Shown here: piece by piece, positions 1-64,000 of the stretch | Layout of the letters: each line of letters opens with the position of its first letter | How positions within the stretch are numbered: the first letter of the stretch is position 1 | DNA from: Ciborinia camelliae | Lineage: Eukaryota; Ascomycota; Leotiomycetes; Helotiales; Sclerotiniaceae | DNA: 64,000 bases | Direction: 5' to 3' | NCBI GenBank assembly: GCA_025890175.1 | Contig: JANPYM010000019.1 | Span: 186,001-250,000, forward strand | Translations under genes and position numbers: made by a program | The notes under the pieces: model-generated | The model's input: only the letters and a program-made list of their open reading frames with translations | What the model was told of the DNA's origin: nothing | Database searches by the model: none

Positions 1-424
1 AAATCGAAAAAAGAAAATAAATTCGAAAGGAAAAGATAGGTTTAAAGAAAAAAAGTAGATTCGAAGAAAAAAGGTAAATTCATAGGTTTGTGGGTTCATA
101 GGTTCGTAGATTCGTACAACAACAGGTAGAATACTTGTAGTAACAATTCGGTGTGCTCGACTGAAGTTGTGATCAATTTCTGAGATTGTGTTAGTAAACA
201 AACGGGGTTGCGAGGGAGGGGAGGTAGAAGGGGAAAAAAAAGGTTCTAATTGCATGGTCTCGCAGTCATCCTGACACAGATAGAATGATACGTGTTTGTC
301 TTCAAGGCAAGATGTAAGACATGCTGACTAAGAACCCCTCTAGTCTACACTTATGCGAGCCATCTCAAACGGCAAACTCGAGGGTTTCCCAAGTCAAGAT
401 GTTCTCCGAACATGCTTCGTTGAG
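1..424. other. No gene recognised; simple tracts
   Basis: Purine-rich start followed by repeated TTCATAGGTTCGTAGATTCG-like steps near 80-115, which resemble the reverse complement of the CTACGAAC repeat near 21 kb. Nothing coding is recognisable before the carrier fragment. Confidence 0.5.
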
Positions 425-514
425 CACAACCACACTTGACATGCCCCTCCATAAACTGAGAAGTCCCTCTCCAGTAGCTATCCTATATCCTCCTTGTATC
501 ATACCATTGTAAAC
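425..514 (-). pseudogene. Mitochondrial carrier (mitoferrin Mrs3/4-like) fragment
   Basis: The minus strand reads about 30 codons, VYNGMIQGGYRIATGEG then LLSLWRGMSSVVV. Mrs3/Mrs4-type iron carriers of the inner mitochondrial membrane have this run in a matrix loop, with the carrier consensus EG..LWRG. In the family the next residues are normally GAGPAHA, but here the frame runs into unrelated sequence, so the piece is cut at 425. It is an internal slice of a protein of roughly 300 residues with no start, stop or membrane helices. The family call is strong; mitoferrin rather than another carrier is inferred from the YNGMIQG motif. Confidence 0.82.
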
Positions 515-599
515 GGCGGAAGGGGTTGGGAAGTTTTTTAATTTTAAAGTTATATTGATTGAATTAAAGGTGGGTTAATTAATTTGATTTATTAATAAA

Positions 600-690
600 G
601 CAGCTCCACCAGCTCCACCAGCTCCACCAGCTACTCCAGCTACTCCAGCCACTCCGGAATCTAAGCCAAGCAACTCTCCAAGGGACCCAG
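600..690 (+). pseudogene. Ala/Pro-rich coding-like fragment with minisatellite
   Basis: CAGCTCCAC units are repeated in frame and read APPAPPAPPATPATPATPES, then KPSNSPRDP. It looks like a linker piece of a structural protein. The open frame runs straight into the dispersed repeat starting at 690, so the junction is abrupt. No protein can be named. Confidence 0.4.
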
Positions 691-821
691 TAACAGGGGT
701 GGATTTATCAGGTCACATGGGGATTAGACTAGCGTAGTATTAGTTCAGGATCTTGCTTATAAGCAATCCCAGTTTAAATCTTGAATCCACATCCCCTTTC
801 AACGAAACCACTGTATTTTCT
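690..821 (+). repeat. Dispersed repeat family, copy 1
   Basis: 132 bp that align without gaps to 18868-18999 and, in reverse, to about 63091-63190. Relative to this copy, the 18.9-kb copy has 11 differences that I count, all transitions, 10 of them C-to-T or G-to-A. This copy therefore looks least mutated. The unit contains the phrase AGGATCTTGCTTATAAGCA and ends in ACGAAACCA; no coding capacity is seen. Confidence 0.85.
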
Positions 822-1605
822 GGTATATGTTACGGCAGTAGTGAATACGGCCTCTAAGAGTTCCTGAGATGTCAGGCATATTACTTCTCGCTAGGCCCCT
901 TAGGGGCGCATGCTTAGGCGAAAAAACCACCTATTATAGGATAATTTATATTTTCCAGTTAAATACCCTTAATTTTTAAAATAACTAAACTTTTTCATTA
1001 ATTATTAATATCTGATACGTTTAAATTAACAGATATTATATTTAACGGATAATTTTAAAACTAGAAAAGCTATTTGAAGTTGATAATATTAAATTGGAAA
1101 GAAGCTTCGGAAAGAGTTGTTCCGATCCGATTAAAACTTACTAAGCCCATCGGGGCTTTTAAATTCCGACCGGGGTTTTCCCGAACCCCTAAAATACTTC
1201 GCTATACCCCCTACGCCACCTACGTCAACATTATAATAATATAAATACTAAAATCGATCGATTCAGCGAAAGTTGACCCGCACGCTTCGCCGGGGGTGGT
1301 GCCAATGTGGTAGTGGTGGTGGTGATGGTATTAGTAGTGATGGTTGATTGGCTGCTTACTTCTCTGCCTTCGCCGACCCCCGACCCCCCGACCCCCGACC
1401 CCTCGACCTAACCACTATCCACCAATCAAATTAACCATAAACTAACCAAAATTTTGAAATTAACCAATAAAAATCAAAATCTAAAAATATAATTAACTAG
1501 TTAGCTACTGGATAATTATCGGGTCAAATTAAAATATAGATATCAAAAATTTCATCGATACTTTAAAAAAATCTAGAACCTAACTAGATCTAGTGGGAAA
1601 TTTGA
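822..1605. repeat. AT-rich block, likely RIP-degraded repeat
   Basis: Two AT-rich stretches (about 930-1130 and 1430-1580) flank a GC-rich patch with CCCCGACC and GGTGGT tracts (1270-1400). Stops are dense in all frames. This composition is typical of mutated transposon remnants, but no transposon protein motif survives. Confidence 0.5.
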
Positions 1606-1770
1606 ACTGGGCCTGCGCCCCTAAGGCCGTCCTGGTTTTCCGGTTTCACCTCCGACCTCCACAACCCCTCCTTCTGGACCACCTTCTACAATAGCGCAAT
1701 CACAGCTGGCTTCGGACGGGCCTTTCTCAGCACCTTCTACGTTGTTGTACCACCCTTCGTCGCCCTTTGA
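1606..1770 (+). pseudogene. Membrane-protein-like coding fragment, unnamed
   Basis: An open frame without ATG reads about 54 codons to a TGA at 1768, including FTSDLHNPSFWTTFYNSAIT and GFGRAFLSTFYVVVPPF. The aromatic, hydrophobic ending suggests part of a membrane protein. I do not recognise the family. It sits between an AT-rich block and unrelated sequence. Confidence 0.45.
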
Positions 1771-2038
1771 AATCAGCTTCGACTTAAGCAGTGATTTGCG
1801 TGATCGTGCTTCAATGATAAGTATGAAAAGTCGTTGTTTCCAAAATGGTGACTGGCAGAATCTCTAAAAAAGTTGTTTTATTATTAATAAAACAAATTTT
1901 CTATATTGGGTTAAAGATAAAGTGACCGAAAGCTGACGTGCAAGGATTCATCTGTCCGTGCGACTTGGAGATTTGATAAGCACTTCCGAATGCCATCAGC
2001 GTTATTGAGAACAAGCACCAACTCTTCCTTCCGAAGGC

Positions 2039-2232
2039 ACGACCCTTTTGTGGGGCGTCACGGCGGCGCTGCCGTTTGTGGGCATCAGGGTGTTTTACGC
2101 GGCGGCGGTGTTGTCGCAAAACTCGCCCAGATGGCGCTCCCCCTCGCCCCCCTCGTGCGCATCACCAACGGCGAAGTGCACCCCTCGTTCCCCAAGCTCC
2201 TGGTCAATTTCTGGCTTCTCACGGCCATGCAA
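2039..2232 (+). pseudogene. Composite of two coding-like fragments
   Basis: Two overlapping frames look coding. The first (2039-2127) reads LLWGVTAALPFVGIRVFYAA, similar to a helix of fungal integral membrane proteins of the DUF7702 type. The second (about 2110-2232) reads HPSFPKLLVNFWLLTAMQ. The second resembles small fungal proteins with an HPSFP..L..FWLLT motif. The frame change near 2110-2130 fits a junction between two donor genes. Both names are tentative. Confidence 0.4.
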
Positions 2233-2514
2233 TTAATAAAAAGTCTAATAAATTTAGGGTGTATCTAATTGCTTGACCTTTGTGGAAATAGTTCCGGGCT
2301 TATCGTAAACGATCGCTTTGTAGTGTTAAGACCATCGAAAAATCTCGCTATTATCATCGTCTGGATATTTTGCGCCACCGCTGAAGGAATATCGGCATTG
2401 ATGGTGCCGCTATGATGTAATGGGGCATGGGAGTTTTCTCACGATGATGTTTGGTAGGTAGCTAGCGCTTAGAGAAGTGCAAGCCTTTTCTGAGAGATTG
2501 GGGGGATGAACATA
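2233..2514. other. No gene recognised
   Basis: Unique-looking sequence with no coding frame I trust. Confidence 0.4.
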
Positions 2515-3044
2515 CTAGTCTTCGGCAGTCATTTGCTCAACCCTAAAAGATGATGATGGTGATAAGTATTTGAATTCCAGATATCCCATACTATCTTTTG
2601 AAGGGTGGCCGCTCACAGCAGGAGGGGACAGGAATGGATCATTGCTGCTGCTACTATCTCCAGCGTCGGACGGGATGGATGGATGATCCATTGCTAAAGA
2701 GGTTGACATGATGGTGGGACTTGTATCTCCATCGTTTCCGTTAACACTAGCATCTTTGATTGGGCGAGGGACCTTTAACTTTTTGCCTTCAAACATAAAG
2801 CTCGTTGCCTCTCGGTCATTTTCGCACTCCATGATTCCGCCAATACAATGATATTGAGTGAGCCTTTGTACCAAGAACTCCAAGTCACAAGCGCCTTACC
2901 TTCCGAAAGTTCCGTATTTGGGTAGGTATCGTGACCGTGACCGTGACGGTTCCGCTGACTGGTAGAGTGGAGTGGAGTGGAGCTCAAGCTATGGATTCGT
3001 TTCAAGTCAATGTCCTCCTTGTAGATATTTGTAGTTGGTGACAT
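2515..3044 (-). pseudogene. Unnamed coding-like minus-strand stretch
   Basis: Two overlapping minus frames (2515-2883 and 2775-3044) are open. They are Ser/Asp/Pro-rich (for example SIPSDAGDSSSSNDPFLSPP), as in disordered regions of fungal regulators. No domain is visible. These may be exon pieces or chance frames. Confidence 0.3.
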
Positions 3045-6868: not shown

Positions 6869-7478
6869 TACACTTTGGGTGTGGTGGTGAGCCCTGAAAA
6901 TGACGGCGCTCAAAATTTAGCCTCGCCGGCCTCGCTCATGAATTAAAACATATATTAAGACATCATGTCCAGATAAATCTGGTGTCAGGGGATTGTTCTC
7001 GTCGTTCCCGTTATACATTTTCTTTTTTCATTCTCTTCAAAAAAGGTAGTAGGTAAGGCATGTAGGTAGGTAGATAGTTGTAGTATTAAATAAAACCACT
7101 ACTTGGCGGCTTGGCCATGAAGCTTTAGAAAGTTCCAATAAAGTTAATTTCTAATATTAAACTTTACGGGGCAGTAATTAGTGAAAGAACATATCCGCGA
7201 AGAAAATCAGGATACTCCGCCCACTTCCGCTAACTCTCAATCTAGAAATCCGAGATTGGGTTTTGGGATTGGATTGGATTGGATTGTATCCTTTAGTTGT
7301 GAGTTGTATGTTATAGATGAAGGAAGGAAAGAAAGGTATAAATATACAAGATGACCAGCCGCCAAAGCACTACACAGGGAAAGCTCACCAGCCAAAACAG
7401 CTGCAGCAATTACGGGGATGTTGGGATCTAGGTAGGTAGATACTAGGTAGGTAAACGTTTTTATAGTACTTATGATTC

Positions 7479-7780
7479 GTGTATTCTTTATGTTATTATT
7501 ACAGTACTGGATTTTTAGAGTTGGAGTTCCAAAAATCGTCCTTCAGTCCAGAAATGAATTGCAGTCACTGGCTGCTCAATTTTCATAACTATGAGATCAA
7601 CTTATTAGCTGCTTGTTCGTTAGTAGATCTGCTGTCAGATATCATCTCGAATCATTTGAGTCCACCAGACGCCTTGCAGCCGCCAAGCTATTATCCGTAT
7701 GTTGAAGGGTCTCCAGGGTCTCCAGATGTGTGGTTTGCTGGTCAGTGGGTAAAGCAGGTTCTAGAATGGTCAGTCAGGTA
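7479..7780 (+). pseudogene. Unnamed 100-codon open frame
   Basis: Open from an ATG at 7479. The later half (ALQPPSYYPYVEGSPGSPDV then WFAGQWVKQVLEW) looks coding; the first half is less convincing. It runs directly into the NACHT-type fragment in another frame near 7781. No family recognised. Confidence 0.3.
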
Positions 7781-7918
7781 GCTAAATTATCAGACTCTGC
7801 ACTTACTGGAGTTGACCTAAATGGCCTCTTTGCTTCGATGTGGAAGAGGCTCGGGGCCGACGAGCATTTTTATAGAACCGAGGCAGCTAATATTTTTCAG
7901 CTTCTCCTCTGCCAGGAC
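7781..7918 (+). pseudogene. NACHT-type NTPase (HET/NLR-like) fragment
   Basis: Reads SGVDLNGLFASMW-like sequence (exactly TGVDLNGLFASMWKRLG), then YRTEAANIFQLLLC. Fungal NACHT/NLR-like proteins have this pattern after the NTPase core: (P)xxLxxLFxxMxxxI then Yxxx(A)xxIFQLxL. These proteins act in nonself recognition. Walker motifs are not in the piece. Confidence 0.6.
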
Positions 7919-8030
7919 GAGGTGTATCTTTCCATGTAACAATGCAACATGCTGAAGCAAAGAAGATCACCGAGCGGTTATTGTTTTCAAAAACGCAGCA
8001 CTTTTTTCATTTCAACCAAGCGGCCGGTAC

Positions 8031-8336
8031 CTTTACAACAACCTGATAGATCCTGGCAAGCTTACATCGGGTGATATCGCAGGCATAACAGACATTGTAA
8101 ATGCAGCCTCAGGTTTCTCAACGTACGTCCATCAGTCTAATGACAACTACAGACCTCTGAGTCCATCTGCTAGGGCTAGGGGTCATCCTCACAAAGAGAA
8201 ACACTACCAAGTAAATGGAGATTCGGGTGCCAACATCATCACGCCGGCAGTTCTCCTGAATAAACATCCAATCAATCAATCATAAACAAAATTAATCCGC
8301 AACTCAAATGCCATCCTTTCTTTTCTTTCATCTGAG
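8031..8336 (+). pseudogene. Unnamed 100-codon open frame without ATG
   Basis: Reads LYNNLIDPGKLTSGDIAGIT, DIVNAASGFSTYVHQ, then GHPHKEKHYQVNGDSGANII before a TGA near 8334. The residue mix looks coding for at least the first 60 codons and may be two or three pieces in the same frame. I cannot name it. Confidence 0.4.
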
Positions 8337-8466
8337 CCCGTCATAGCTTCATGACTTCCTCTAGCAATATTGTGCTCCGTCGAAGGAGTTGGAATGCCGC
8401 ACTCAAGCCAATCCATTATTCTTTTCCGCTCGCGATGGTTCACGAAATGCCGCCTCGGTTTGTTAA
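8334..8466 (-). pseudogene. Unnamed coding-like minus fragment
   Basis: The minus strand reads NKPRRHFVNHRERKRIMDWL then ECGIPTPSTEHNIARGSHEA. It converges tail to tail with the open frame on its left. No family recognised. Confidence 0.4.
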
Positions 8467-10501
8467 CAACGCCACATTATCACCGGTTTGAAATGGAAAG
8501 ACGAAGTAAACAAAATATCAATATGGTAAGTGTGATATTTAGGATGTATATGGCCCAACGACGGACATAATCGAGGTCTTTAGCAAAGAAATCCAGAGAC
8601 ACGCCATTAAGAATGTATGTTTTGCAGATTCTTATAGTGCGCGCAAAATTCTTCGAACCACGCGGAGAACGCTCAGTGGGCTGGAGCGTATCGTGATCCG
8701 TGATGTTACGGCACACACCTTTCGCACGCTCTCCCATTTGATCGGATTTTGATCGGATCTGATCGTATCGGATCCACATTTCCGTTTCAACGTTCCATAC
8801 CTACCTTGGTATTCATGCGTGGCGGGGCATTGACATTCATGCATTTGGAATGCCTGTACCCTACCTACTCAGAGTCTGGACTTGGCTGGGTAGGAAATTG
8901 GTAAGTAAACAAAGTCGTCGTAAACGAGTAACTTCTGTGATAAGAGTCGTAGAAGTAGTTCTTCCACGTACCAAATGTAATAGTGATCGAAATATCGGAA
9001 TGAAGAAATCACCTCATGTAACCACTCGTGCCAATGTCTCTCACTGCGTCAACATTTCATTTCGAAGATTGGCGCTGTCGGCCAAATTCTTCCACATCTT
9101 CGAGCGAAAATCATCGATCGCGAGGAAAGAACGATACGGCACACAAATCGAACCCCCAGTGGCCTCCGCAGAACATTTTCTTCGATTTGAGAATATGCAT
9201 TTTCCGGCAATGGAATCCTGTACATTGTAATTGTGTAATTATTTGTTACGGTAGATACGTGCAGCAATGAGAATAAAACTAATTAGTCCCCACACACACA
9301 CTCACTCCTCATACCCACTTACTCCATCTCCAATTCTATCTTCAGCGAAGGCGGTTCGGAGCCGCCCTGATGTGCCAGCTTGATGATTGGCCTCAGCCGG
9401 GCCTGTGAAGTGTAGTTGTCCCCATTCTGCGCGATCATCCCATTCGGTGGACAATTGTTCAACTACTCGTTTCTTCTTCTTCTTCTTCTTCTCATCATAA
9501 TCATATCGTGCCGCAAATGTGGCCGCTCTCGCATTCGGAATCGAGGGCTGCAAGGAGAGCAAGAGATCTTTTGGCTGGATCTATCGGAATTTGTAAGTGG
9601 CCAACTAAATCATTCGAACGTGAGTAGAATATTCGATACCACCAGTGATTTGCTGACAGTTTGGTGAACCACTCTACCGGTATTCGCATTAGAAATCTAC
9701 TGGGCCGAAGCATCACGTGAAGTAGAAGGCGAAATATTTATTAATTAATACATATATATATTTCCTATCACTCTCTGATCTGGATCTGGATCTGGATCTG
9801 GATTCTGATGTTGATGTTGATCCCGATTCTTCCCTAATTTCTTTCATTGCCGGACCCTTACCTTTCTTGACAAGCTTCAAAGTTGCACTCTTTCAAATTG
9901 AGATAAAGTTCCGTTCCGTTTTTTCGAACATGAATTTAAGTACCTATGTGCTGCTCATCAATATATCCTCAGTTTAAGGATCTCGGGAGCAGAGGTACAA
10001 TATCCTCCCATAACGTCTTGTCTTCAACTGCCACCTGAGTCTTAGTCACGTCGCAGTCCTTAACAAATTCTTTCGTATGATACTTCTTCTCTTAGAGTGT
10101 GTGAGCAGACAATATTTTTTGACCGTGCCTACAACTAATAATTTTTTTAAGTAGAGGGTGGGGAAGAGGGTGAGGGTTGAGGAGGGGGAGTATCGGGAGA
10201 GGGTTGGGAGGGAGAGGGAGGAGGCGAGGTTGGAGGGGATGGTGGGGGCGGCGATGAGGGTTGCGGAGAGGATGGATGGGGAGAGCTCTGACTGATGGCC
10301 GGCGTTGTTGTTGTTGTTATTAGATCTACCAAGATCTTCTTGCATCTGCTGTAACTCTTGTTCTTCTCTTAGTTGCTGTAGGTCCAACAATTGCATTTCC
10401 GCCTCGAAGCGCCACCAAGGAAAAGTTTTGTGCCGAATGATTGGTAGACACTCTGGGGGTATCATATGAGTTGACGCGAGGTACAGATGAATGTAACAGC
10501 C
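8467..10501. other. Mosaic with only doubtful coding pieces
   Basis: Several short frames look partly coding. Examples are 8611-8749 plus (SYSARKILRTTRRTLSGLER), 9512-9595 plus (ANVAALAFGIEGCKESKRSF) and 10147-10400 minus (a Gln/Glu-rich helix followed by an Asn run and Ser/Pro tract). None is recognisable. Low-complexity TTCTTC (9470-9490), GGATCT (9780-9800) and AGGGAGGGGA (10155-10290) tracts lie between them. Confidence 0.35.
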
Positions 10502-10615
10502 GAAGCCGACAACCGCAGAGCTCGCCTCAGAGCTCAAAAACTAGCCCAGCACAGAGCTGCAGCTATCGACCAACTCTTGATCTCCGTACCCATCGATGGG
10601 AATCAAACAGAGGTA
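10502..10615 (+). pseudogene. Helical coding-like fragment, unnamed
   Basis: Reads EADNRRARLRAQKLAQHRAA then AIDQLLISVPIDGNQTE: a basic amphipathic helix followed by an extended segment. The GAGGTAGG after it could be an exon end. Family unknown. Confidence 0.4.
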
Positions 10616-10814
10616 GGTAGACCGCCTGTTTGGGGGAAATAGGTTGAGAGTATTTCCGGGGGGTAAAACGGTAGCTCGATTTCCGAAGCAAATGGGGCGA
10701 ACTTTAAAGCCATGTTGAGTTTATTATTGTCGTTTCTGGTCTTTTGAAGCTTTCACATGCAGTCACGCAAAGCAATCGGAATGTCCGTTCCCAAATACTG
10801 TATTCCTGTCGATA

Positions 10815-10889
10815 TGCGAGAATAACATGTCGATTTTGAGATTGTTATCCGAGGAGGTGTTTGACTACTCGGCGGACCAGACTTTTTAA
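10815..10889 (+). pseudogene. Exportin-1 (CRM1/XPO1) fragment
   Basis: Reads CENNMSILRLLSEEVFDYSA then DQ before TFstop. NNM.ILRLLSEEVFD(Y/F)S..QMT is a near-invariant stretch in the N-terminal HEAT-repeat region of CRM1, the nuclear export receptor for leucine-rich signals. The expected MTSTKT is replaced by TF and a TAA at 10887. About 25 of 1070 residues remain. Confidence 0.9.
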
Positions 10890-10901
10890 AGCAACCTTTC
10901 A

Positions 10902-11213
10902 ATGAGCTATATTTCACATGTAGATTCATTTTCTACACACCATAAACCACAGTTACAAGAAACTTCATATTCTCCCTCACAAAAATCTCGATGCATAAGG
11001 AATTTGTTAATTCTCGAAGATTTCATGATACAATTTTCGGATTGTAGGTCTTTTGGTTATAGGCCTGATGATTGCCAGATTTTGAGCGTGGATGGAACAT
11101 GTTTTAGTCGTGAAGGTCTGTTTACCGAGGAACAATCTTTACATAGAGGATTAAAATTAGAATGTAGGAAGAGAAAAGGGACAGTAGCGTCCAGCTCCGG
11201 GAACTATACCTAG
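10902..11213 (+). other. Unnamed 103-codon open frame
   Basis: Open from ATG to TAG. The composition is mixed and no motif is recognised, so it could be chance or a join of intronic and exonic pieces. It begins 12 bases after the CRM1 piece stops. Confidence 0.25.
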
Positions 11214-12073
11214 TACGCTCCAAATACTTCCTTCTAGCCCAGGTAGTAGTAGTTAATTAAATTATATTTTAAACCCCTATATATCAGATCAGTATAATAT
11301 TCGAGTATTACAATTTGTATAGATTAAAACTCATCGAGTCGACTTATCAAAGATAGCAGAGAAAGTCCGAATGAACCCCATGTTTTACTGGAATCAAAAG
11401 TCACTTACATTTACTACATCGTAACATGGCTTCTTCTACCCACAACATTAAATCGGGCCCAGAATATGGTGGCAGTGACAGTGGGAGAAGAATACCCAAG
11501 TCTCAATTGTCTCGATGTCGAGAAAATCAGCAACATGCGGGTGACCACGAGACCCAGGTTCTAGAATCTAAACGTAAATGTGGACCAAGAACAACGCCGG
11601 AAACCATTCGCTGAATCCTTCACCAACCGGACAGATGGTTTCTAGGAATTTGCGAGTTCGGAGTAACATATTCCCCCTCCCGTCACACTATTGACAGCCG
11701 CCGAGTCAACCGAGAGGCCCAATTTAGGAGCAACTATACACGTCTGCTCCTCTTTCAGAACTCTATGGCCGGTTCTATATCTACCACGTGGGAAATGTGC
11801 TGCGGGGCGAGGGATACGGCAAAGATGGTTCCGACGAATGGAAAAGATCCAAGCACGGAGGAGTATCTAGTTTCCATCGTCGACATACCTCTCTCGTGAC
11901 TTCATTAATAAATGAATTGCAAATGCAAAAATTCAGTTTTCCATGCTTTCAGTCTGTTGTGTGTCCATAGCCAATTCCTCTTTAGAACGTTCTCGGAATA
12001 TTTAATATGGAGATCTGTCCATTCCATGGGCGATAGATTCATTTATTATCGTCCCTTGCGCTTATTTGATATA
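11214..12073. other. Doubtful coding pieces only
   Basis: A plus frame at about 11458-11562 (QNMVAVTVGEEYPSLNCLDV) and one at 11761-11898 (STTWEMCCGARDTAKMVP, then GKDPSTEEYLVSIVDI) look partly coding. Neither is recognised. Confidence 0.3.
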
Positions 12074-44580: not shown

Positions 44581-44622
44581 CCTTCTTTGCTTGAAGCTGA
44601 AGATCGAATCAGGGGGTTGACC

Positions 44623-52761: not shown

Positions 52762-53516
52762 CTCGTGTGTGTTTCTTTCTCCACCTCCCCCCCATTTTCT
52801 TTAATCTTCGCCAAAAATGTCAACATCATCGAATGGGCAACTAAGAAATTCAAGCGGTCGGCTCAATTTAAGGACTTTAATCTCTTCGTAAGTCAAAAGT
52901 ATGCCCGAAGTGACTTGGCGACCGGATACTGATGCGATAATGTTTAGATGGATAAAGTTAACAAGCAAGGTCGGTTGTAATCGATGCAGTCTCGAGAGGA
53001 AGCTTTTGTTCCCGGTACTCTATCCAAATATTTTGCAGATACTCTCGAATGTCATTCAGATCTTTGAAAAAGCAGAACATCAGTGTTCAAAGCAAAGAGA
53101 ATAAAGGACATTCGCTCATCAACGTGCCTGAGTTGAATGCTGCTATTCAGCTTTATCAACGACTTAAGACAGATTATAGATCTTATGATTTCAGTCATGC
53201 AGAACAGCGGCGCATGAAACAACATGCGTGATATTCGCATTCGCTTCCGCGAATAAAACGGCCAGCTTGAGTCGCTGCTCCGGGCACTTTCCTCCTATAC
53301 TTCGCACGAATACACGAGATAGGAAATGATTGTAAGCGAGATTAGATTAAAATATCTTGACAGTCAAAGTCTGAATACATTGCCATATCTATACTGTTGC
53401 AATAGTTTATAGTACGCCAATTGCACTATAAACAGCCCTTACATACGCCTGCGTGCGTTCAGACTGTGTGGTTATGGAATTTGCTTTGCGAATCGGAAAA
53501 TAAATATATGGCTTAC
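52762..53516. other. Doubtful coding pieces only
   Basis: 52824-52930 plus reads NIIEWATKKFKRSAQFKDFN. 52986-53055 plus reads QSREEAFVPGTLSKYFADTL. 53080-53230 plus reads NVPELNAAIQLYQRLKTDYR. All are plausible; none is named. Confidence 0.35.
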
Positions 53517-53624
53517 CCCGTGAATCAGGAAGATGGTCGCAACGGGTTCAGCTCCATCTTTAGGTTCGGCAAGGATATAGGAGTAAGTTCGACCATTGAC
53601 ATCGGCGGACTTGTATTGAACTCG
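53517..53624 (-). pseudogene. Epoxide hydrolase-type alpha/beta-hydrolase fragment
   Basis: The minus strand reads RVQYKSADVNGRTYSYILAE then PKDGAEPVATIFLIHG. NG..Y.Y(I/V)(L/Y)(A)(E)P....ATI(F/L)LIHG(W/F)PD is the N-terminal strand pair and oxyanion HG motif of soluble epoxide hydrolases. The next bases are GTAAGC, a likely splice donor in place of the WPD codons. Confidence 0.88.
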
Positions 53625-53785
53625 CTTCATATCCCCTGCCTATACCGATGTATGTACCCTCATCAATTAATCATGTACCCCGTAGACTCATCCCTTCATT
53701 TATAAGAATTGTTTGGACCAACTGTTGGACTTTTGATAATCATTGCGGATACCATGAATTCTAAGAAACTCTGGGCAAGTTAAAC
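53625..53785. other. No gene recognised
   Basis: Short spacer without supported coding. Confidence 0.4.
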
Positions 53786-54007
53786 GTGGTGCTGGGCTCA
53801 TTGATGATTCGTGCATTCCGCTGGCCAGATGATTTCGACGACAGTAAACTCATGACTTTGGCAGGCTGGACCAGAGACCAAATTAAAAATGAAAGGATTC
53901 AGCAAGTCCAATGGGTTCTTCGTACGCTTGAGATGCAGAGAGGGGTTTCACCAGGCGACTCAATACGTAACGACAACTCAAACAGACGTCTACCTACATA
54001 CGTATGA
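53786..54007 (+). pseudogene. Unnamed coding-like fragment
   Basis: Reads AFRWPDDFDDSKLMTLAGWT, RDQIKNERIQQVQWVLRTLE, then MQRGVSPG. Likely real coding for about 60 codons. Family unknown. Confidence 0.45.
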
Positions 54008-54079
54008 GGTTGCATGCTTACACGGTGGATTGCGTTGATATCGCCTGAGCATTTCTGTACAGCTAGAATTGAGAAAGCT

Positions 54080-54220
54080 CCTCAGTTGAACCTTTATATA
54101 TCTTCATTCCGAGTTGAAGCATTTCCCGCAGATGCTACTGTCTTATTTCTCTATACCAATGAGCGCAGCATAGTGATTGGGCGAAACCAAAACCCTTGGA
54201 ATGAAGTGAACCTCCACTAG
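54080..54220 (+). pseudogene. Lipoate-protein ligase (AIM22/LplA-like) fragment
   Basis: Reads APQLNLYISSFRVEAFPADA, TVLFLYTNERSIVIGRNQNP, then WNEVNL. NP..NL(.).E.(.)L......(S)..(L)FLY.N...(I/V)VIGRNQNPW.E.N(L) is the diagnostic block of lipoate-protein ligases in mitochondria. The catalytic Lys lies further on and is absent. Confidence 0.92.
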
Positions 54221-54521
54221 ATAATTTGTTAAGATTATTTTTTACGTTGTTATTTTTTTGTGGATTCAATTAATTTTTGTAAAATAAAGAATCCATGAAA
54301 ACGAAAGTAGAAAAAGATATAGATAGACAAAAAGATAGCAACTGTAAATGGGTGCAAAGCTGTAGAAATTCTGGTGAAGGGGGGAATAAACTTGATCTTA
54401 TTTGACTTCAAAAATTGTAACAATGTCAGAGTAAAACTCAAAGCTTGACAATAAAAGGAGATAGGGAGCTTAAGAGGCCCGGATTTCCCGTGGAACTGGA
54501 AGTGTACTGTGCTACCTAGCA
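54221..54521. other. No gene recognised
   Basis: Includes T-rich sequence; a minus frame (54250-54522) is open but hydrophobic and unconvincing. Confidence 0.4.
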
Positions 54522-54731
54522 CTATACTGGTGTGCTGTGCGGCTGTGCAGCTGTATGATTCAATGGAAGTATGTAATTATATGGAATGTCGCTCGAAGGT
54601 CTTCTTCTTTCTTCCATTTCTTCATCGCACATGAAATCATCTGAATATCTTGATATTACCTCTTCAACAGCGGGTCCATTATCAATATTGGACTGGGTAT
54701 TTCTTCTCAATCTTGCGATTGCCTTTGTCAT
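54522..54731 (-). pseudogene. Unnamed coding-like minus fragment
   Basis: From the ATG at 54731 the minus strand reads AIARLRRNTQSNIDNGPAVE then EVISRYSDDFMCDEEMEERR. Charged and plausible; not recognised. Confidence 0.4.
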
Positions 54732-55064
54732 ATTAGAAAAATGACAATATCTAATTCGTAAAATCGTCTTTGTTGTTCTTCATTCAAACTTCAAAACAAC
54801 ACAGGTAACACGAATTCTAAGCTCAAAATCACATTAGCGTACATGGGGCATTAGCTCGGACATGAGTATCATGTGTCTCCACCCGAGTTATAATTGATAT
54901 TCGTTTATGGCAGTGATTATAGAACAATGAGAGTGAAAATACTGCCCTTCTGGTTACATACATTAACAATCACACGCCACCTCTGACTCGTTGCTTTTGA
55001 CGGTCATTTACATCGAGATCATTCACCTTTGGTAGCCTTGTGTGCCTAGGACCTCGTCGGCTTT
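54732..55064. other. No gene recognised
   Basis: Unique sequence, nothing supported. Confidence 0.4.
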
Positions 55065-55110
55065 GGTGGTGAACAGCTCGACGAGATCCTCGTTGCTGGT
55101 GGACCATGGA
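55065..55110 (-). pseudogene. RRM RNA-binding protein (GBP2-like) fragment
   Basis: The minus strand reads PWSTSNEDLVELFTT. In fungal Gbp2/Hrb1-type shuttling mRNA-binding proteins RNP2 reads (N)LPWSTSNEDLVELF.TIGKV(E). The continuation here (KADEVLGTQGYQR) is unrelated, so only 15 residues support the call. Confidence 0.65.
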
Positions 55111-55149
55111 AGCTACATTGTGCATTAGTTTGTGAAACTATAAATTTTA

Positions 55150-55263
55150 CAGTTCATCGAAGATCTCCGCGGCATGGTTGAAGAGCGGCTTGAGGCATTT
55201 CACGAAAGAAATGACTCACTCCCGGCACACATCCTTTTTTATCGTGACGGAGTTGAGAGATGA
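55150..55263 (+). pseudogene. Argonaute PIWI-domain fragment
   Basis: Reads QFIEDLRGMVEERLEAFHER then NDSLPAHILFYRDGVER and a TGA. L+.M(V/I).ERL..(F/W)...N..LP..IL(V/F)YRDGVSE is the PIWI core of eukaryotic Argonautes (QDE-2/Sms-2 type in fungi), and the D of YRDG is a slicer catalytic residue. The donor organism therefore probably has RNA interference; this copy cannot act. Confidence 0.93.
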
Positions 55264-55395
55264 GAGGAGAGGAAATGGAAACTGTAGATACTCTTACCAA
55301 GGGGCCACAGTTTGGCATACATATGATCCCTGTTTTTTAATACCTGATAATCCCTGGGTGGGGGGGATTTCAGGGTAGGTAACATGATATGATAG
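55264..55395. other. No gene recognised
   Basis: Short spacer with a GGGTGGGGGG run. Confidence 0.4.
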
Positions 55396-55470
55396 GTGAG
55401 ATTCTCGTCCATTGGAGGAGATAGTATAGAGGCCTTCCTGGAAGTGTGTTCCAGGTGGCAGATTGTAAGA
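55396..55470 (+). pseudogene. Possible carrier-protein (NRPS/PKS) fragment
   Basis: Reads RFSSIGGDSIEAFLEVCSRW. (F)(F).(I/L)GGDS(I/L)(.)A is the phosphopantetheine attachment motif of NRPS/adenylate-forming carrier domains, Ser included. It rests on a dozen residues; a minus frame over 55480-55590 (AARLNTAILTDDEIAFVPIV) is also coding-like next door. Confidence 0.45.
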
Positions 55471-55598
55471 TCTGTTCAGCCATCGATCTCCCTAAGTCCA
55501 GTTGGCTTGTTTTCTTGTTCCACAATAGGAACGAAAGCTATCTCATCATCTGTTAAAATAGCCGTATTTAAACGAGCTGCTCTCCCCAGCTGAGCCTG

Positions 55599-55730
55599 CA
55601 TATCCCCCACCAACAGTGATGCCAGGAAACTCCATTACTACCGGTGGTATCAGATTATGCTCCATGGTCGCCTCGAACTTTTCCTTGAGGATCGCGATAT
55701 GTTGATCTGAAGGGTTCGCAAAGGTATCAG
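55599..55730 (-). pseudogene. FAD-linked sterol reductase (DHCR24-like) fragment
   Basis: The minus strand reads DTFANPSDQHIAILKEKFEA, TMEHNLIPPVVMEFPGITVG, then GGY. (L).P.V(V/M)(M/P)EF(P/K)GITVGGG(F/Y).G(T/S)(.GES)S is the FAD-binding-4 signature of delta-24 sterol reductase-like flavoproteins. The conserved GGG nucleotide-binding turn is present; the piece ends there. Confidence 0.85.
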
Positions 55731-55772
55731 CTGCAATTATAGAAAATATCGTATATGCTAATTGGTACTTAC

Positions 55773-55898
55773 TTGGGCAGCTGCATAAGTTTCTACATTT
55801 CTACATGCAGCCATCATGACCACGCAATCCAAACACGGTACTTTGAGGAAATAAAGTCTTTCTGCGAGCAAGCCCAAAATATCCGCTAGGCGATCCTA
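55773..55898 (-). pseudogene. Unnamed fragment ending at a splice donor
   Basis: The minus strand reads DRLADILGLLAERLYFLKVP then CLDCVVMMAACRNVETYAAA and Q, followed directly by GTAAGT. Strong coding texture. Family unknown. Confidence 0.5.
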
Positions 55899-56925
55899 CA
55901 TAATTAGGTGTCCAATGCGCCTTGAATGGCTTTAAAATTTTATTTTTTTACATTTTCCTTCTATAGCCAAGGGGGGCTCATGCATGCTTAGTATTCCCGT
56001 TCTGATTTGAAGGGAGACCTGTAGAATGCCGTGAAGTAATACCGCAAAATCTAGCATGGGTACGCTCGATTCCACTGACTATATCATTCGCAATCTCTCA
56101 GACGCATCAAAAGCGCCCAAGGACGATTGGACTCGAGCAGCTGATCTTTGTTCTCTCCCCCCTCCTCACCTCCATCTCCATGCATGCCCCTCAACTTTCA
56201 ACCGACTAAACAACTCTCCATCTCGAGATGAGAACCTTGGGATTGGAAGTTCTGTTATCATGTCTCCACGATCTCGTCCAAAGTTTTCTGATGCTTGGTA
56301 TTCGTAATCTCGGAGTCGACTCTTTTGTGGCCCTTTTTCTGTTTCTCTCCCGTCCAGCTTGTTGATGATAAAGGGGAATATCTTCTCGAGTACATTCCCA
56401 GTATTAAACCAACTGCACTCCTCAATCTATCACTCGGATCAATTATCGAATTTAGAGTTAAAGAATCAGAATCAGACAAAACTGCAATCTAGCTAAAACC
56501 CTATTAATTGGAATTAGATCCGTTTCCATGTAGAAACTCATGGCCGGCCAAACCTTTGTCTCGGTGCATCTCCAACGACTACAACACGGAATCTATTCCG
56601 ATGCCAACTTGCACACCAAACACACCAGTATTTATCCTTCCCCAGACAAAGCGGGGAAGTGGGGAGGGGAACATTATGTAGATAAGAATATGAGAACAGG
56701 TAAATAGAAAACATACCTCAGCACGAGGTGACACGGGTGGGAATGGGCATGGGCATGACTCGGACTATCAAGTCAATTGAAGGAACTATCTTCAAAATAA
56801 TCAAAAGCATTGAAACGAACATCTTGAAGCCGGAGTTAAAGGATATCTCGCGGAGTTCATGTCCGGCATAATCGCTTTCGAGGATAGGGGAATATTTGTT
56901 TGAATTCGAGCGAGCTAACGCAGAT
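55899..56925. other. Doubtful coding pieces only
   Basis: 56056-56150 plus (TDYIIRNLSDASKAPKDDWT), 56345-56470 plus (VQLVDDKGEYLLEYIPSIKP) and 56545-56700 plus (TFVSVHLQRLQHGIYSDANL) are coding-like. None is named. Confidence 0.35.
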
Positions 56926-57048
56926 GTTACCTACATGGAGTTATTCAAGCCCAACATGATTAATCGAACACACATCGGTATCTTCACACAAATCTGGTCT
57001 CAACTTACTGGTATGAATGTCATGATGTATTACATTACTTACATTTTA
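56926..57048 (+). pseudogene. Hexose/sugar MFS transporter fragment
   Basis: Reads VTYMELFKPNMINRTHIGIF then TQIWSQLTGMNVMMYYITYI. (E)LF(+)P.M..R..IG.F.Q.W.QLTGMN.MMYYI.Y(V/I)F is the loop and helix 7 region of fungal sugar porters of the plasma membrane; QLTGMN lines the sugar site. The next helix is missing. Confidence 0.93.
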
Positions 57049-57105
57049 GAAGCAACGACATTCCTGGATACTCTTCGCCCTCGACTTTTCTTTAAAGTGA
57101 CTGCG

Positions 57106-57185
57106 GCTTCATAATCATCAATCGCTTCAGCTTGTTCTGAAGAATCCGCAACAATTTCTTCCTCATTATTCCCAACCTGGATAGA
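57106..57185 (-). pseudogene. Acidic coding-like minus fragment, unnamed
   Basis: The minus strand reads QVGNNEEEIVADSSEQAEAI then DDYEAAVTLKK. Other frames over this interval are less convincing. Family unknown. Confidence 0.4.
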
Positions 57186-57873
57186 TTGGTATGAACGATA
57201 GTATCACAATCTGTCATCTTAAGAAGATTCGTGATAGCGGGTGCCGCAATTCTCGTGAGTACGCGGAGTAGATGAACAATTGGTGCGATCAGGACTACCA
57301 TTACTGTAAAAGACATTGGATGGCGCCGACAAGGGACTAAACATGGACTTTGACTTTCTGACCAAGAACATCTGAGGATGCAACCACTGAAGGCACCGCA
57401 TCGGACATTTAAAATTATAATAAAAATAAAGATTTTAATTTTTTTTTTGCGAGCTGAGGTCAAGACTCAATTTTCGTTCCATAGGTACCCAAGGTGTAAG
57501 TAGGTAGGTAATACATATACCTACCCACCTAGGTATTAGAGAGTACTGCCCAAGTATGAGTAGGTACCACGATTAAGAACCGGAGAAAATTGAGTTTAGT
57601 CATACATTTTCTGCTGCGATCTTCAATGAGGCTGATTTTGAGGTGGCCGCTAATTAATAATTTTTTTGCAGAACTTTCCCTCCGTCTCGTAGCAATTCAC
57701 AAATCCTACAATGAGGTCTCACGTATTTCGCACGTGTGGCTCAGCTCAGCGATAGTTATCGAGGTGTCGAGGTTCATAAAAATGAAATTAAAATATAAAA
57801 TATTGATCGGAATCTTTGAATCTATCCAGTGGTCCAATTAAATTAATTCTACGATATGTGGTTCAAAAGTTAT
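57186..57873. other. No confident gene
   Basis: Includes an AGGTAGGTAATAC/TACCTACCCACCTAGG tract (57495-57535). No recognised coding. Confidence 0.35.
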
Positions 57874-57887
57874 AACCCTAACCCTAA
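57874..57887 (-). repeat. Interstitial telomeric repeat (CCCTAA type)
   Basis: AACCCTAACCCTAA, just over two units. A minus-strand coding-like frame begins a few bases to the right. Confidence 0.75.
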
Positions 57888-57890
57888 GTT

Positions 57891-58097
57891 GAAATCGATA
57901 GAAGAATTAATGAGGGAGTCTTGAATAGGAGTAAGAGGAATTGGAGGACTTGAACAAATAGTAGGATAAACATCTTCATGATCAACAAATCCTGTATTAT
58001 TTCGAATCTCAGTTCTTTTGATTAATTGTACAGTGATGCATTTATGGCTTCGAGCCGGAGATAACGTACCGGAAAAGCTAGAAAACCCACCGGGCAA
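57891..58097 (-). pseudogene. Unnamed coding-like minus fragment
   Basis: The minus strand reads ARSHKCITVQLIKRTEIRNN then HEDVYPTICSSPPIPLTPIQ. Plausible real coding. Not recognised. Confidence 0.4.
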
Positions 58098-58189
58098 GAA
58101 CTGAAATTGTCACATGTAAAGATGGGGCTCGCATGTCACTGTTATAAAATTATCTGCGGCGTCCATACCAGACCTTGGCTATCAATCCC

Positions 58190-58286
58190 TCAACTCATAC
58201 GACCAATTTCCCCTCCCCCACTCCACCCAAGAAGGGAAAAAAAGAAAGCTTCGAAGAGTGAAGAGTGCAGAGGGCAAAATGCATTG
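58190..58286 (+). pseudogene. Exon-like fragment before a putative intron
   Basis: Reads YDQFPLPHSTQEGKKRKLRR then VKSAEGKMHW up to a GTAAGC. The Lys-rich sequence is coding-like. Together with the following intron it is the best sign that donor pieces were genomic. Family unknown. Confidence 0.45.
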
Positions 58287-58334
58287 GTAAGCCTTGTCTT
58301 TTGATTATTGCTTTCCCTCCTTGACATCACCCAG
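58287..58334 (+). other. Putative retained 48-nt spliceosomal intron
   Basis: Starts GTAAGC, contains a TTGAC branch-like motif 10 bases before the end, and ends ACCCAG. Length and signals fit Pezizomycotina introns. After it the sequence soon becomes AT-rich, so the downstream exon is cut short. Confidence 0.55.
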
Positions 58335-58653
58335 CCAGCGTTCGGGTCGGGCAAGAAATATTTTAGATTAAATATTATATTCAATTTTAGAAAACTTAAT
58401 TAATATATAAAAGATACTACATGATGGAGAAGTATATCAATTGAAACTGAAGTATTCCTTTTCCACTTAATTCACACACTCAACAAACAATCCAGCATAG
58501 GAAGGTCTCGGGCTATATTATAGCGATAGTGGGATTCACTTGTCATTGAGATCTAAAACGAAGTGTTATTCTGTAAGGGTTTAGGGCACGGTCCAGGAGC
58601 GGAAACCCTTCTGATACGATCGATTCAAAAATGTCGGGTTGATCATTAAGAAG
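58335..58653. other. No gene recognised
   Basis: AT-rich at 58360-58420, otherwise unique. Confidence 0.4.
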
Positions 58654-58760
58654 TGCTGGTGGTGCCTCTGACAATGATCAAAGTAGCCTTGCTTTTCTTC
58701 AGGGCCTCCACGATACACTAAAACGGTTGCATAATATTTACTCTTGGGTCCATGGTTGAG
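58654..58760 (+). pseudogene. Unnamed helical coding-like fragment
   Basis: Reads SAGGASDNDQSSLAFLQGLH then DTLKRLHNIYSWVHG and stops. Likely real coding. Not recognised. Confidence 0.4.
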
Positions 58761-58959
58761 CTTAATTCTCCCTCTCCTGAGTTAAAATTGTCGCGAGTTT
58801 AAAGTTTTGATACTTAGTATAATGTCAATATCAGAAAAAGGAGTTCGAGCTCGTTAAGGATTCGGGTTGGACTGCTTGTAACATAAATCTTCTTTATAGC
58901 AACAAATTTCCGCCCACGACGCTGTTGATTGTAATTGCCTATAGCCAGGCAAATACCAC

Positions 58960-59178
58960 GACACAGTCGTGCAAGCGCTCATTTCCGCCGGCATGCCCTA
59001 CGATCAGGAGCACATGGACAACACGCTTTTTGAATGTGGCGATGCGTCGAAGAAGGGCATCTGCGCGTGTATCCTTGCATTTGCCATATCCGGGCTGCAT
59101 TGGCTATCTTCTGTCGGCACACACTACCGTTTTACCGCGAATGCGGTCATCTCTTCTCTCCTTAAAGTAGGCCCATGA
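58960..59178 (+). pseudogene. Unnamed coding-like fragment
   Basis: Reads YHDTVVQALISAGMPYDQEH, MDNTLFECGDASKKG, then ICACILAFAISGLHWLSSVG. A soluble texture changes to a hydrophobic one near the middle, suggesting two donors in one frame. 59210-59285 (NYWNPKKAPPSITYVTGKQK) is a further coding-like piece. Confidence 0.4.
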
Positions 59179-59314
59179 CCAGCGACGATTGCGTTCATGA
59201 ATCTTACTCAGGAGCAGAATTATTGGAACCCAAAGAAAGCACCTCCTTCCATCACATATGTCACGGGGAAACAAAAACCCCCAACAGTATAACCCAAAAA
59301 AAGATCCCTTCAAT

Positions 59315-62450: not shown

Positions 62451-62570
62451 TCTAGCTCCTGTCCTAGCTCTCTAGCTCCTGTCCTAGCTCTCTAGCTCCT
62501 GTCCTAGCTCTCTAGCTCCTGCCCTAGCTCTCTAGCTCCTACCCTAGGTAGCTCTCTAGCTTCTGCCTTA
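62451..62570 (+). repeat. 20-bp minisatellite (TCTAGCTCCTGTCCTAGCTC)n
   Basis: About five units of a 20-bp repeat with later copies diverged (CCTGCCCTAG, CCTACCCTAG). A GCTTAGCGTAG tract lies just upstream (62285-62310). Confidence 0.95.
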
Positions 62571-62659
62571 GACAGAAACCCTTGGCAGTTTCTAATATAG
62601 ATCGCGTATAGCTTCAATCTACAACCTTTCCACCACTCCCGCTGCCCCGCCTTGATTCT

Positions 62660-63090
62660 GTAATGGAGTCATCCTCTTAATAACTTTTATAATAAATTTT
62701 GTATAATTTAATTTTACTTAAATTAAATATAATTTAAAAAAAATATATAAATTTAAGTTTTAAAAATGAAAAAATAATTTATTAATTATATTTCAATTTC
62801 TTAAAAAACTATATCGGAATTAATTATAATATAAAAATATTTAATTTCTTTTTTTGAAAAAATATTAAAAAATACAAAATACTAAAAATATATAATAAAA
62901 AAATTATATTTAAAGATTTTAAAAAATTATATTATTAATTTAAATAAAAATATAGAAAAATTCAAAAATTAAAATATATATTATAATATATTAAATAAAA
63001 AAAATCAAATAAATAAAAATTCTAAATTAAAATCGAAAAATCCTATAAAGATTATCAAAAAATAGTTTGATTTTGTTAAAAAAAAATATA
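62660..63090. repeat. AT-rich block
   Basis: Almost pure A/T, no coding. It runs into the third copy of the dispersed repeat. Confidence 0.6.
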
Positions 63091-63190
63091 GATTAAAAAT
63101 TTAAACTAGAATTATTTATAAGCAAGGTCCTAAACTAATACTACGCTAGTCTAGTCCCTATATGACCTAATAAATCCACCCCTATTATTG
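63091..63190 (-). repeat. Dispersed repeat family, copy 3 (inverted)
   Basis: The reverse complement reads AATAGGGGTGGATTTATTAG then ACTAGACTAGCGTAGTATTA, matching 690-821 and 18868-18999. It carries further transitions (for example ATAATTCTAG for GCAATCCCAG). It merges into the AT-rich block on its left. Confidence 0.8.
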
Positions 63191-63469
63191 TAAATAAGTT
63201 ACCCGTAGTATTAATCCTGTTATATTGGGGAAGCTTTGTGGAACGATTCTTCTCCCGTATAGGGGTTTTACGTCATTCCGTATTTGTTACCGATGAGCAT
63301 TCTAGATCCGTCTCCTTATTCAGAAACCTATCATCGAAACAAATACAAAGTACCTCAACTCAGACTCTCCAAGAAACAGTCTATCTATCTATCTATCTAG
63401 TATAGAAAAGAAATGTAAGTAGAAAAGAAAGAGAAAAGAAAAAGAAAAGGAAAAGGAAGTAGAAAAGAA
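63191..63469. other. No gene; CTATCTAT and AAAAGAAAAG tracts
   Basis: (CTAT)n at 63380-63400 and an AAAAGAAAAGAAAAAG purine tract at 63420-63485. No recognised coding before the next frame. Confidence 0.4.
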
Positions 63470-63682
63470 AAGAAAAAGAAAAAGACTCAAGGAGAAGTAG
63501 ATGCTAGACTACCCAGTCCTCCGATCTTAACTTGCAATAAGCCTCTGCCAATGAGAATTCTCATTAGAAAAATCGTATCCCAGACAATTTACAAAAAGGA
63601 ATTAGTCCCGGATGATGTATATCAGCTCCTGCCTCGAACTCTTCCCCGCCGAGCTTATAAGAAGATATACCCTGAATTTTAA
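63470..63682 (+). pseudogene. Unnamed open frame, coding-like
   Basis: Open without ATG and reads TQGEVDARLPSPPILTCNKP, LPMRILIRKIVSQTIYKKEL, then VPDDVYQLLPRTLPRRAYKK before TAA at 63680. Basic and well balanced, likely real. Family unknown. Confidence 0.45.
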
Positions 63683-63822
63683 ACCCTTAACCGCCGCTGG
63701 AGATAATTCAAAAAAGGCTTTGGTAGTAAGCCGGTGCCAAGCGGTCAAATGCAAGGAGGAACAAAACAAGCCAGAAGATGGTGTACACGATTTTGATAGG
63801 AAACTCCGCAGCCGTAAAAAGC

Positions 63823-63930
63823 AAAATCGAACGTCAACGGAATCAAAGAAAGACCAGTCGTACCACCAAATAGTTGATTGACGATAACATTATCAGGAGC
63901 GATCCAAGAGATAATAATGCATGTAGTGGA
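63823..63930 (-). pseudogene. OPT-family oligopeptide transporter fragment
   Basis: The minus strand reads WIAPDNVIVNQLFGGTTGLS then LIPLTFDFA. (A/P)(.)N(.)(.)VNQLFG...GLS(L/M)(I/L)P(L/I)TFDW is the signature of OPT oligopeptide transporters in the fungal plasma membrane. The W after TFD is already F, marking the junction. It is one loop and helix of about 800 residues. Confidence 0.92.
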
Positions 63931-64000
63931 GGTGGAATAACTTACTTCGTGATGCCGGCTATTGTCGACTCCCCCTCCGAACTCCAACTATTTTCCCGGC

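What the first reader, a model, noticed from the sequence alone, without database searches (positions are those of the whole stretch)
1..64000. A 64-kb mosaic of short fragments from dozens of unrelated genes
Seen: about 45 pieces, mostly 60-170 bp, each matching an internal block of a different conserved protein, in both orientations, with unrelated sequence beginning abruptly on each side and no complete gene. Known: normal fungal chromosomes carry a gene every 2-4 kb, and gene-fragment accumulation is described for B chromosomes and for filler DNA at repaired breaks. Inference: this region grew by repeated insertion of short pieces of host DNA, or is a degenerate dispensable chromosome. I know of no described fungal region this dense in single-copy gene fragments.
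Basis: partly seen in the sequence, partly recalled or inferred. Interest (0 to 1): 0.93.

Follow-up and report, generated by a model that had tools for sequence, protein, structure and literature searches.

The report
Chromosome region built from genome shards
A stretch of a fungal chromosome looks pieced together end to end from short (about 40-170 letter) copies of DNA from all over the same genome, as if shredded DNA had been glued into chains and kept, which is far beyond the few-piece patches described for DNA break repair.

Summary
The window lies on a 536-kb contig (C11) of Ciborinia camelliae (Sclerotiniaceae). Where a search against its own genome was not saturated, the sequence resolves into 41-171-bp pieces (mean 94, n=62) joined end to end, 86-100% identical to mostly single places. 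Two 3-kb blocks are covered 2993/3001 (42 of these bridged) and 2807/3001; 155 pieces from 20 contigs were placed in the window. A normal 2.2-kb locus matched only itself and its one copy in the window. Of 47 joints with both sources known, 42 have no added base, 33 of them with 0-1 bp overlap. Orientation is 77/78; sources follow contig length (p=0.76). Split pieces, expected from repeated insertion, are nearly absent (one doubtful case). Two other C11 places carry copies of already-joined window DNA, so joints are seen twice and joining recurred. Best explanation: end joining (Ku/Lig4-type) of short double-stranded genome fragments into chains; sizes match the 44-bp floor and 60-150-bp optimum reported for end-joining capture in yeast. 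Raw reads were not available, so an artefact is unlikely but not excluded; 26 kb of the window was not queried.

The parts
10000..13000 (.). resolved block: 35 pieces with sources on 19 contigs; 2993 of 3001 bases covered, 42 of them bridged inside one C8 piece; one piece (C3) has two equal source copies
45000..48000 (.). second resolved block: 30 pieces, 2807 of 3001 bases covered; unexplained gaps of 4, 14, 7, 114 and 55 bp; two of the pieces (46146-46234, 46719-46800) have several source copies
7000..10000 (.). 16 further distinct pieces of 81-171 bp placed (search saturated at 40 candidates)
36000..45000 (.). 26 single-place pieces spread over 9 kb (search saturated; two repeat families left out)
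50300..59200 (.). 39 single-place pieces spread over 8.9 kb (search saturated)
1..3000 (.). 5 single-place pieces (103-224, 426-530, 2116-2225, 2604-2716, 2716-2822); other candidate slots taken by repeats
27200..35100 (.). 4 single-place pieces seen; other candidate slots taken by dispersed repeats
10858..10968 (.). 111-bp stretch spanning three pieces (sources C27, C1, C7) that recurs at 98% as one piece of another mosaic at C11:42458-42568
45298..45397 (.). 100-bp stretch spanning the joint of pieces from C24 and C4, recurring at 100% at C11:77852-77951 with both window differences from the C4 source
11075..11223 (+). piece from C8:76689-76830 holding an unmatched internal insertion of about 30 bp and a 7-bp deletion: the only candidate for a split piece
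11582..11681 (-). piece of a Bmt2 (25S rRNA methyltransferase) gene, source C23:1613986-1614085, 100% identical
9344..9473 (-). piece of a gene with glutaminase A-type domains (PF17168, PF16335), source C24:187754-187886
10474..10612 (+). piece within the open frame of a RING-finger gene, source C26:455622-455760
7813..7933 (+). piece of a NACHT-type gene whose frame is 100% identical to NHQ30_002607 [Ciborinia camelliae]; source C21:106343-106463
12297..12467 (+). 171-bp piece from a place with no frame covering 80% of it (C21:1705323-1705493); its source locus served as the negative control

Best explanation
The region is one or more natural concatemers of shredded nuclear DNA. Short double-stranded fragments (about 40-170 bp) from across the genome were joined end to end, nearly bluntly and in random orientation, by the non-homologous end-joining machinery (Ku/Lig4), and the chains became part of contig C11. 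This happened in at least two rounds, because other places on the same contig contain cut-out copies of already joined window DNA. Shown: copies of sources that are still present, end-to-end tiling in two blocks, near-blunt joints, a narrow size range with a floor near 45 bp, genome-wide sampling, near absence of split pieces, reuse of joined DNA. Inferred: the enzymes, the origin of the fragments (for example incompletely degraded nuclei in multinucleate hyphae), whether each chain was inserted at a break or formed free, and that the joining was by ligation and not by synthesis.
For: Tiling. Joints: of 60 consecutive pairs among 61 fetched pieces, 47 lie close enough to score (13 have gaps of 50 bp or more and were set aside); 42 of 47 without added bases, overlaps 0 bp 19, 1 bp 14, 2 bp 4, 3 bp 2, and 5, 6 and 10 bp once each, against 55/28/11/4% for 0-3 bp expected for blunt joins; 5 joints with 1-3 added bases. 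Little base preference at 121 source ends (one of 16 positions p<0.05). Sizes: 62 resolved pieces 41-171 bp, CV 0.35, 1 below 45 bp against 23.6 expected for an exponential with the same mean. In yeast, end-joining capture has a 44-46 bp floor attributed to Ku binding, transformed fragments of about 60-70 to 150 bp insert most often, and insertions of two to four joined pieces occur; very rare insertions were seen without Pol4 (PMC10802722, passages). Sources follow contig length (155 pieces, p=0.76), orientation 77/78, neighbours from one contig 3 of 34 and 4 of 29 against 2.2 and 1.9 expected. One mismatch rate, 1.49%, fits the 35 pieces of the 10-13 kb block (p=0.54). Reuse of joints. Coding mismatches 11 non-synonymous, 7 synonymous. 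No RIP-type excess: parent-to-mosaic A>G class 35, C>T class 26.
Against: Three of 42 joints overlap by 5, 6 and 10 bp, more than chance (nominal p=0.002), so some microhomology use or aligner over-extension. Over all 61 pieces the mismatch rate is not uniform (p=0.0003), and the uniform 10-13 kb test used strict alignments that leave out the second part of the C8 piece. That C8 piece may be split by a small insertion. An earlier hand-collected tally of 116 sources, including other C11 stretches, was uneven between contigs (p=0.0135). In the yeast study captured nuclear-genome pieces were about twice as long as mitochondrial ones, often came from fragile regions, and microhomology at ends was part of the evidence; none of that is matched here. 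Whole dispersed repeats of about 110-510 bp also sit in the region. No Ku or Lig4 gene was looked for in this genome. Divergent pieces would be missed, so ages are truncated.
Confidence: 0.7

Rival explanations
1. Template-switching synthesis (MMBIR/FoSTeS or polymerase-theta type): a broken end copied about 90 bp at a time from many places.
For: Pieces are copies and the sources remain. Three joints have 5-10 bp overlap and 5 have 1-3 added bases. Templated insertions at breaks are documented in yeast (PMC11724301, search listing with start of abstract only).
Against: Overlaps are close to chance (33 of 42 at 0-1 bp); successive sources show little clustering (3 of 34 and 4 of 29 on the same contig, 2.2 and 1.9 expected); the narrow size range with a floor near 45 bp fits Ku binding better.
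Confidence: 0.13
2. Assembly or library artefact: ligated fragments or chimeric reads assembled into a contig.
For: There is an unmerged 1729-bp overlap at a 10-N gap, so the assembly is imperfect here. Raw reads could not be seen.
Against: Window joints recur at C11:42 kb and 77 kb with truncated piece ends. Pieces differ from sources by 92 substitutions, 61 of them transitions, and only 4 indel openings in 6258 bp of strict alignment, unlike raw long-read error. The 1729-bp mosaic stretch occurs twice at 99.94%, as expected if two contigs held the same DNA.
Confidence: 0.07
3. Repeated insertion of single short pieces into a growing region.
For: More than one round occurred. One C8 piece carries an unmatched internal insertion of about 30 bp.
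Against: No other split collinear piece among the 155 placed; pieces abut over 3 kb; one mismatch rate fits the 10-13 kb block.
Confidence: 0.05
4. RNA-based or transposon-based capture: reverse-transcriptase template jumping over RNAs, or Helitron/Pack-MULE capture.
For: End-to-end template jumping needs no homology (recalled). Transposon-like repeats are present.
Against: Some pieces lie in no open frame and coding pieces are mixed in sense, 6 on + and 3 on -, including neighbours. The 10-13 kb block leaves almost no room for transposon ends between pieces (gaps of 1-3 bp and one 42-bp bridge). A scan for introns in 19 pieces printed nothing and decides nothing.
Confidence: 0.05

Closest known systems
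Complex insertions captured by end joining at double-strand breaks in Saccharomyces cerevisiae (PMC10802722; passages read)
   Same: Short pieces of nuclear and other DNA joined to each other; 44-46 bp floor; about 60-150 bp favoured; several pieces in one insertion
   Different: Two to four pieces there; here 35 in one 3-kb block and an extrapolated 740 in the window, in a natural genome, with reuse of joined DNA; sources there favour fragile regions, here they follow contig length
Ectopic insertion of SPO11 double-cut fragments in mouse meiosis (PMC12918824; abstract and outline seen)
   Same: Short double-stranded genomic fragments inserted elsewhere, by end joining
   Different: Those come from recombination hotspots; here sources follow contig length, and no chain of this size is described in what I read
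Concatemers of transfected or carrier DNA in cultured cells (recalled, no call)
   Same: Random end-to-end ligation of many fragments into a long array that is kept
   Different: Experimental, foreign and usually longer fragments; here natural and self-derived
Chromothripsis (recalled, no call)
   Same: Many blunt or near-blunt joins of shattered DNA
   Different: Large pieces of one or few chromosomes rearranged; here tiny copies from 20 contigs with sources still present

Membership tests
End-joining captured complex insertion | Blunt or near-blunt joints with little added sequence | tested here: met
   42 of 47 joints without added bases; 33 of these 42 overlap by 0-1 bp; 3 of 42 overlap by 5-10 bp, more than chance
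End-joining captured complex insertion | Piece sizes with a floor near 45 bp and an optimum of about 60-150 bp | tested here: met
   62 pieces: 1 below 45 bp, 48 of 60-150 bp; reference values from PMC10802722, passages
End-joining captured complex insertion | Dependence on Ku, Lig4, Pol4 | not testable with these tools
   Needs mutants; the genes were not looked for either
End-joining captured complex insertion | A few (two to four) joined pieces at one break in otherwise normal sequence | tested here: not met
   35 pieces in 3 kb; mosaic also at C11:41.5-43.6 kb and 156-166 kb
MMBIR/FoSTeS or polymerase-theta templated insertion | Microhomology of about 2-6 bp at most joints (recalled) | tested here: not met
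   9 of 42 joints overlap by 2 bp or more, chance 16% (p=0.24)
Helitron/Pack-MULE gene capture | Captured host DNA enclosed by the ends of one transposon (recalled) | tested here: inconclusive
   Almost no room for such ends in the 10-13 kb block; the whole window was not resolved
Chromothripsis | Pieces moved from one or few chromosomes (recalled) | tested here: not met
   Sources on 20 contigs and still present
Dispensable (B or accessory) chromosome | Absent from some strains, unstable inheritance (recalled) | not testable with these tools
   Only one genome of the species was at hand

The most novel reading that the evidence does not exclude
A natural, recurring process in this fungus turns shredded copies of its own genome into long chains of about 90-bp shards and adds them to a chromosome. 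The resulting territory is itself re-shredded and reused, so it acts as an archive of random genome samples and a source of chimeric reading frames, one of which is already listed in public databases as a predicted protein (NHQ30_011322).
Probability: 0.55. Interest if true: 0.94.

Novelty: new variant of a known kind. Interest (0 to 1): 0.87.

Why it matters
End-joining capture of DNA scraps is reported as patches of one to four pieces. Here it appears to have built at least several kilobases, probably tens, of chromosome. That would make the process readable as a natural record (hundreds of joints with known sources), would show that fragmented nuclear DNA can be kept instead of destroyed, and would give a route by which new non-coding territory and chimeric reading frames arise. 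Pieces this short may also escape duplication-dependent mutation (RIP), whose length threshold is recalled, not tested here.

Tried and rejected
Restriction-ligation or proximity-ligation chimera: no consistent base preference at 121 source ends. RIP decay of the mosaic: no C>T excess overall; a local excess beside a transposon-like element at C11:160 kb is listed in passing. Spo11 double-cut origin: considered because of fragment size; the genome-wide spread does not call for it, but it was not excluded. Test whether a transposon interrupts one piece: the element at C11:160681-161186 lies at a joint, so undecided. Intron test: nothing printed, undecided. The C11 pair 169617/229587 first looked like reuse of mosaic but belongs to a dispersed 111-bp repeat and was dropped; the other short C11 pairs were not resolved and are not counted. 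C11:286-296 kb could not be judged because repeats filled the scored slots. Rows left out of the 155 pieces: matches on C11 itself, second copies of a source, and the repeat families; one multi-copy stretch (46146-46234) was kept with its best match. Papers: in the listings (titles and starts of abstracts) of ten searches I saw no report of a comparable region; only open-licence PMC papers are held. Of PMC10512376 (mitochondrial genome of the species) I saw passages.
Full report
Where it is. The window is C11:186001-250000 of a 46.2-Mb genome in 27 contigs; C11 is 536,084 bp. A source locus encodes 706 aa that are 100% identical to NHQ30_002607 of Ciborinia camelliae, and a predicted protein of that species, NHQ30_011322, lies on a contig of exactly 536,084 bp. 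Taxonomy: Sclerotiniaceae, Leotiomycetes.

What is there. The window was searched in seven queries against its own genome (lies inside). Each search scores about 40 candidates, so long queries are incomplete, and 26 kb was not queried. The two 3-kb queries that were not swamped came out almost fully tiled: 35 pieces covering 2993 of 3001 bases at 10000-13000 (42 bases bridged between two matches of one C8 source), and 30 pieces covering 2807 of 3001 at 45000-48000, with gaps of 4, 14, 7, 114 and 55 bp. In all, 155 distinct pieces cover 16,491 bases. Most have one source place; in the resolved blocks three (12468-12570, 46146-46234, 46719-46800) have more than one copy. As a control, one 2171-bp normal locus matched only itself and its copy in the window. 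No frame of 200 aa lies between C11 174,864 and 267,753.

Pieces. In the two resolved blocks 62 pieces not cut by a query end are 41-171 bp long, mean 94, CV 0.35; one is shorter than 45 bp where an exponential of the same mean would give 23.6. Orientation is 77 to 78 and sources match contig length (chi2 16.1, p=0.76). An earlier hand-collected set of 116 gave p=0.0135 with C1 low; the larger window-only set does not show it. Nine of 19 pieces with long source flanks lie in frames of 200 aa or more, 6 sense and 3 antisense to the window; four lie in no frame covering 80% of the piece. Of ten source frames scanned, five had Pfam matches, among them Bmt2, glutaminase A-type, DUF4187 and RING-finger domains.

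Joints. Of 60 consecutive pairs among the 61 pieces fetched with flanks, 47 lie close enough to score; 13 with gaps of 50 bp or more were set aside. Five joints carry 1-3 unexplained bases; of the other 42, 19 have no overlap, 14 one base, 4 two, 2 three, and one each five, six and ten. Blunt joining predicts 55, 28, 11 and 4% for 0-3 bp. Overlap of two or more is not in excess (9 of 42, p=0.24); overlap of five or more is (3 of 42, nominal p=0.002). There is no consistent base preference at 121 source ends (one of 16 positions below 0.05).

Split pieces. One pair of placed pieces has sources within 5 kb, 46 kb apart in the window. One piece, from C8, is interrupted in the window by an unmatched insertion of about 30 bp and has a 7-bp deletion. 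That is the only candidate for a piece cut by a later insertion; random insertion of pieces would have left many.

Age and rounds. At 9,988-13,060 mismatches fit a single rate of 1.49% (35 pieces, p=0.54). This test used strict alignments that leave out the second part of the C8 piece. Over all 61 pieces one rate does not fit (p=0.0003), mainly through three pieces at 7.6-9.3 kb. The 15 pieces of the 45-48 kb block in that set were chosen among the best hits, so their 0.71% is biased low. A 2.1-kb stretch at C11:41458-43568 is also mosaic, and one of its pieces is a 98% copy of window 10858-10968, which spans three window pieces. At C11:77852-77951 lies a 100% copy of window 45298-45397, spanning a joint and carrying both window differences from the C4 source; in the window both source pieces continue beyond the copied stretch, so the window is the older arrangement. 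A third shared stretch links C11:77.6 kb with C11:160.6 kb at 90%. C11:156-166 kb is mosaic too, with ten single-place pieces among the scored matches. Joining therefore happened in more than one round, and existing mosaic served as raw material. Whether the rounds were far apart cannot be told from 0 differences in 100 bp and 2 in 111.

Mechanism. Template switching predicts microhomology that is mostly absent. End joining of double-stranded fragments predicts what is seen, including the size floor: in yeast the minimal size for efficient insertion is 44-46 bp, attributed to Ku binding, transformed fragments of about 60-70 to 150 bp insert most often, and two to four pieces can be joined (PMC10802722, passages). 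The match is not complete: there, captured nuclear-genome pieces were longer than mitochondrial ones and often came from fragile regions. The source of so many fragments is unknown; DNA of degraded nuclei in multinucleate hyphae is my inference. A donor of another strain is not excluded: coding mismatches, 11 non-synonymous and 7 synonymous, or 5 and 6 without the NACHT piece, are few but lean towards loss of constraint in the copy.

Reality. Against an artefact: window joints repeated elsewhere on C11, a biological mismatch pattern (61 of 92 substitutions are transitions, 4 indel openings in 6258 bp of strict alignment), and the same 1729-bp stretch on both sides of the 10-N gap at 99.94%. 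For caution: no reads were available, all comparisons use one assembly, and the gap shows that the assembly is imperfect here.

Novelty. The inferred joining chemistry is known; the scale, the tiling without filler and the reuse are not described in anything I saw in the listings of ten searches of the held papers or that I recall. I rate it a new variant of a known kind with high interest.

Noticed in passing
window 9305-9553 and 10133-10396, - strand: The public predicted protein NHQ30_011322 (169 aa, contig of 536,084 bp) maps as two exons across six shards of unrelated loci: an annotated gene that is a by-product of the mosaic.
   Followed up: partly
window 3876-5604 and 5615-7342: A 1729-bp stretch is repeated at 99.94% on both sides of a 10-N gap: probably an unmerged contig overlap, possibly a tandem duplication.
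   Followed up: no
window 28536-29004: Element of about 465 bp with TACAGTAC...GTACTGTA ends (Tc1/mariner-like, judged from the ends alone) and 13 listed copies elsewhere at 94-98%.
   Followed up: partly
window 688-821, 18866-18999, 63053-63190: Dispersed element of about 134 bp; 33 matches listed for the first copy in the capped search, most at 88-95%.
   Followed up: no
window 898-1627: Element of 730 bp with inverted ends CCTTAGGGGCGCA; matches at 72-94% on C12, C11, C13 and C4.
   Followed up: no
window 43588-43698: Short dispersed repeat of about 111 bp with several copies at 95-100% in the genome.
   Followed up: no
L015:4559-4668 (C11:160559-160668): Mosaic next to a TA-flanked element differs from its copy at C11:77.6 kb mostly by C-to-T (7 of 11, plus one G-to-A): RIP-like leakage from the neighbouring element is possible.
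   Followed up: partly
window 15588-15753 and 34165-34332: Perfect tandem arrays: an 8-bp unit 20.8 times and a 12-bp unit 14 times.
   Followed up: no
C11:96001-106000 and C11:356001-360000 (L009, L028): Very AT-rich DNA (G+C 0.20 and 0.105) on the same contig.
   Followed up: no
C11:267753-276146 (L019-L020): Cluster of frames of 209-323 aa to the right of the window, not identified.
   Followed up: no
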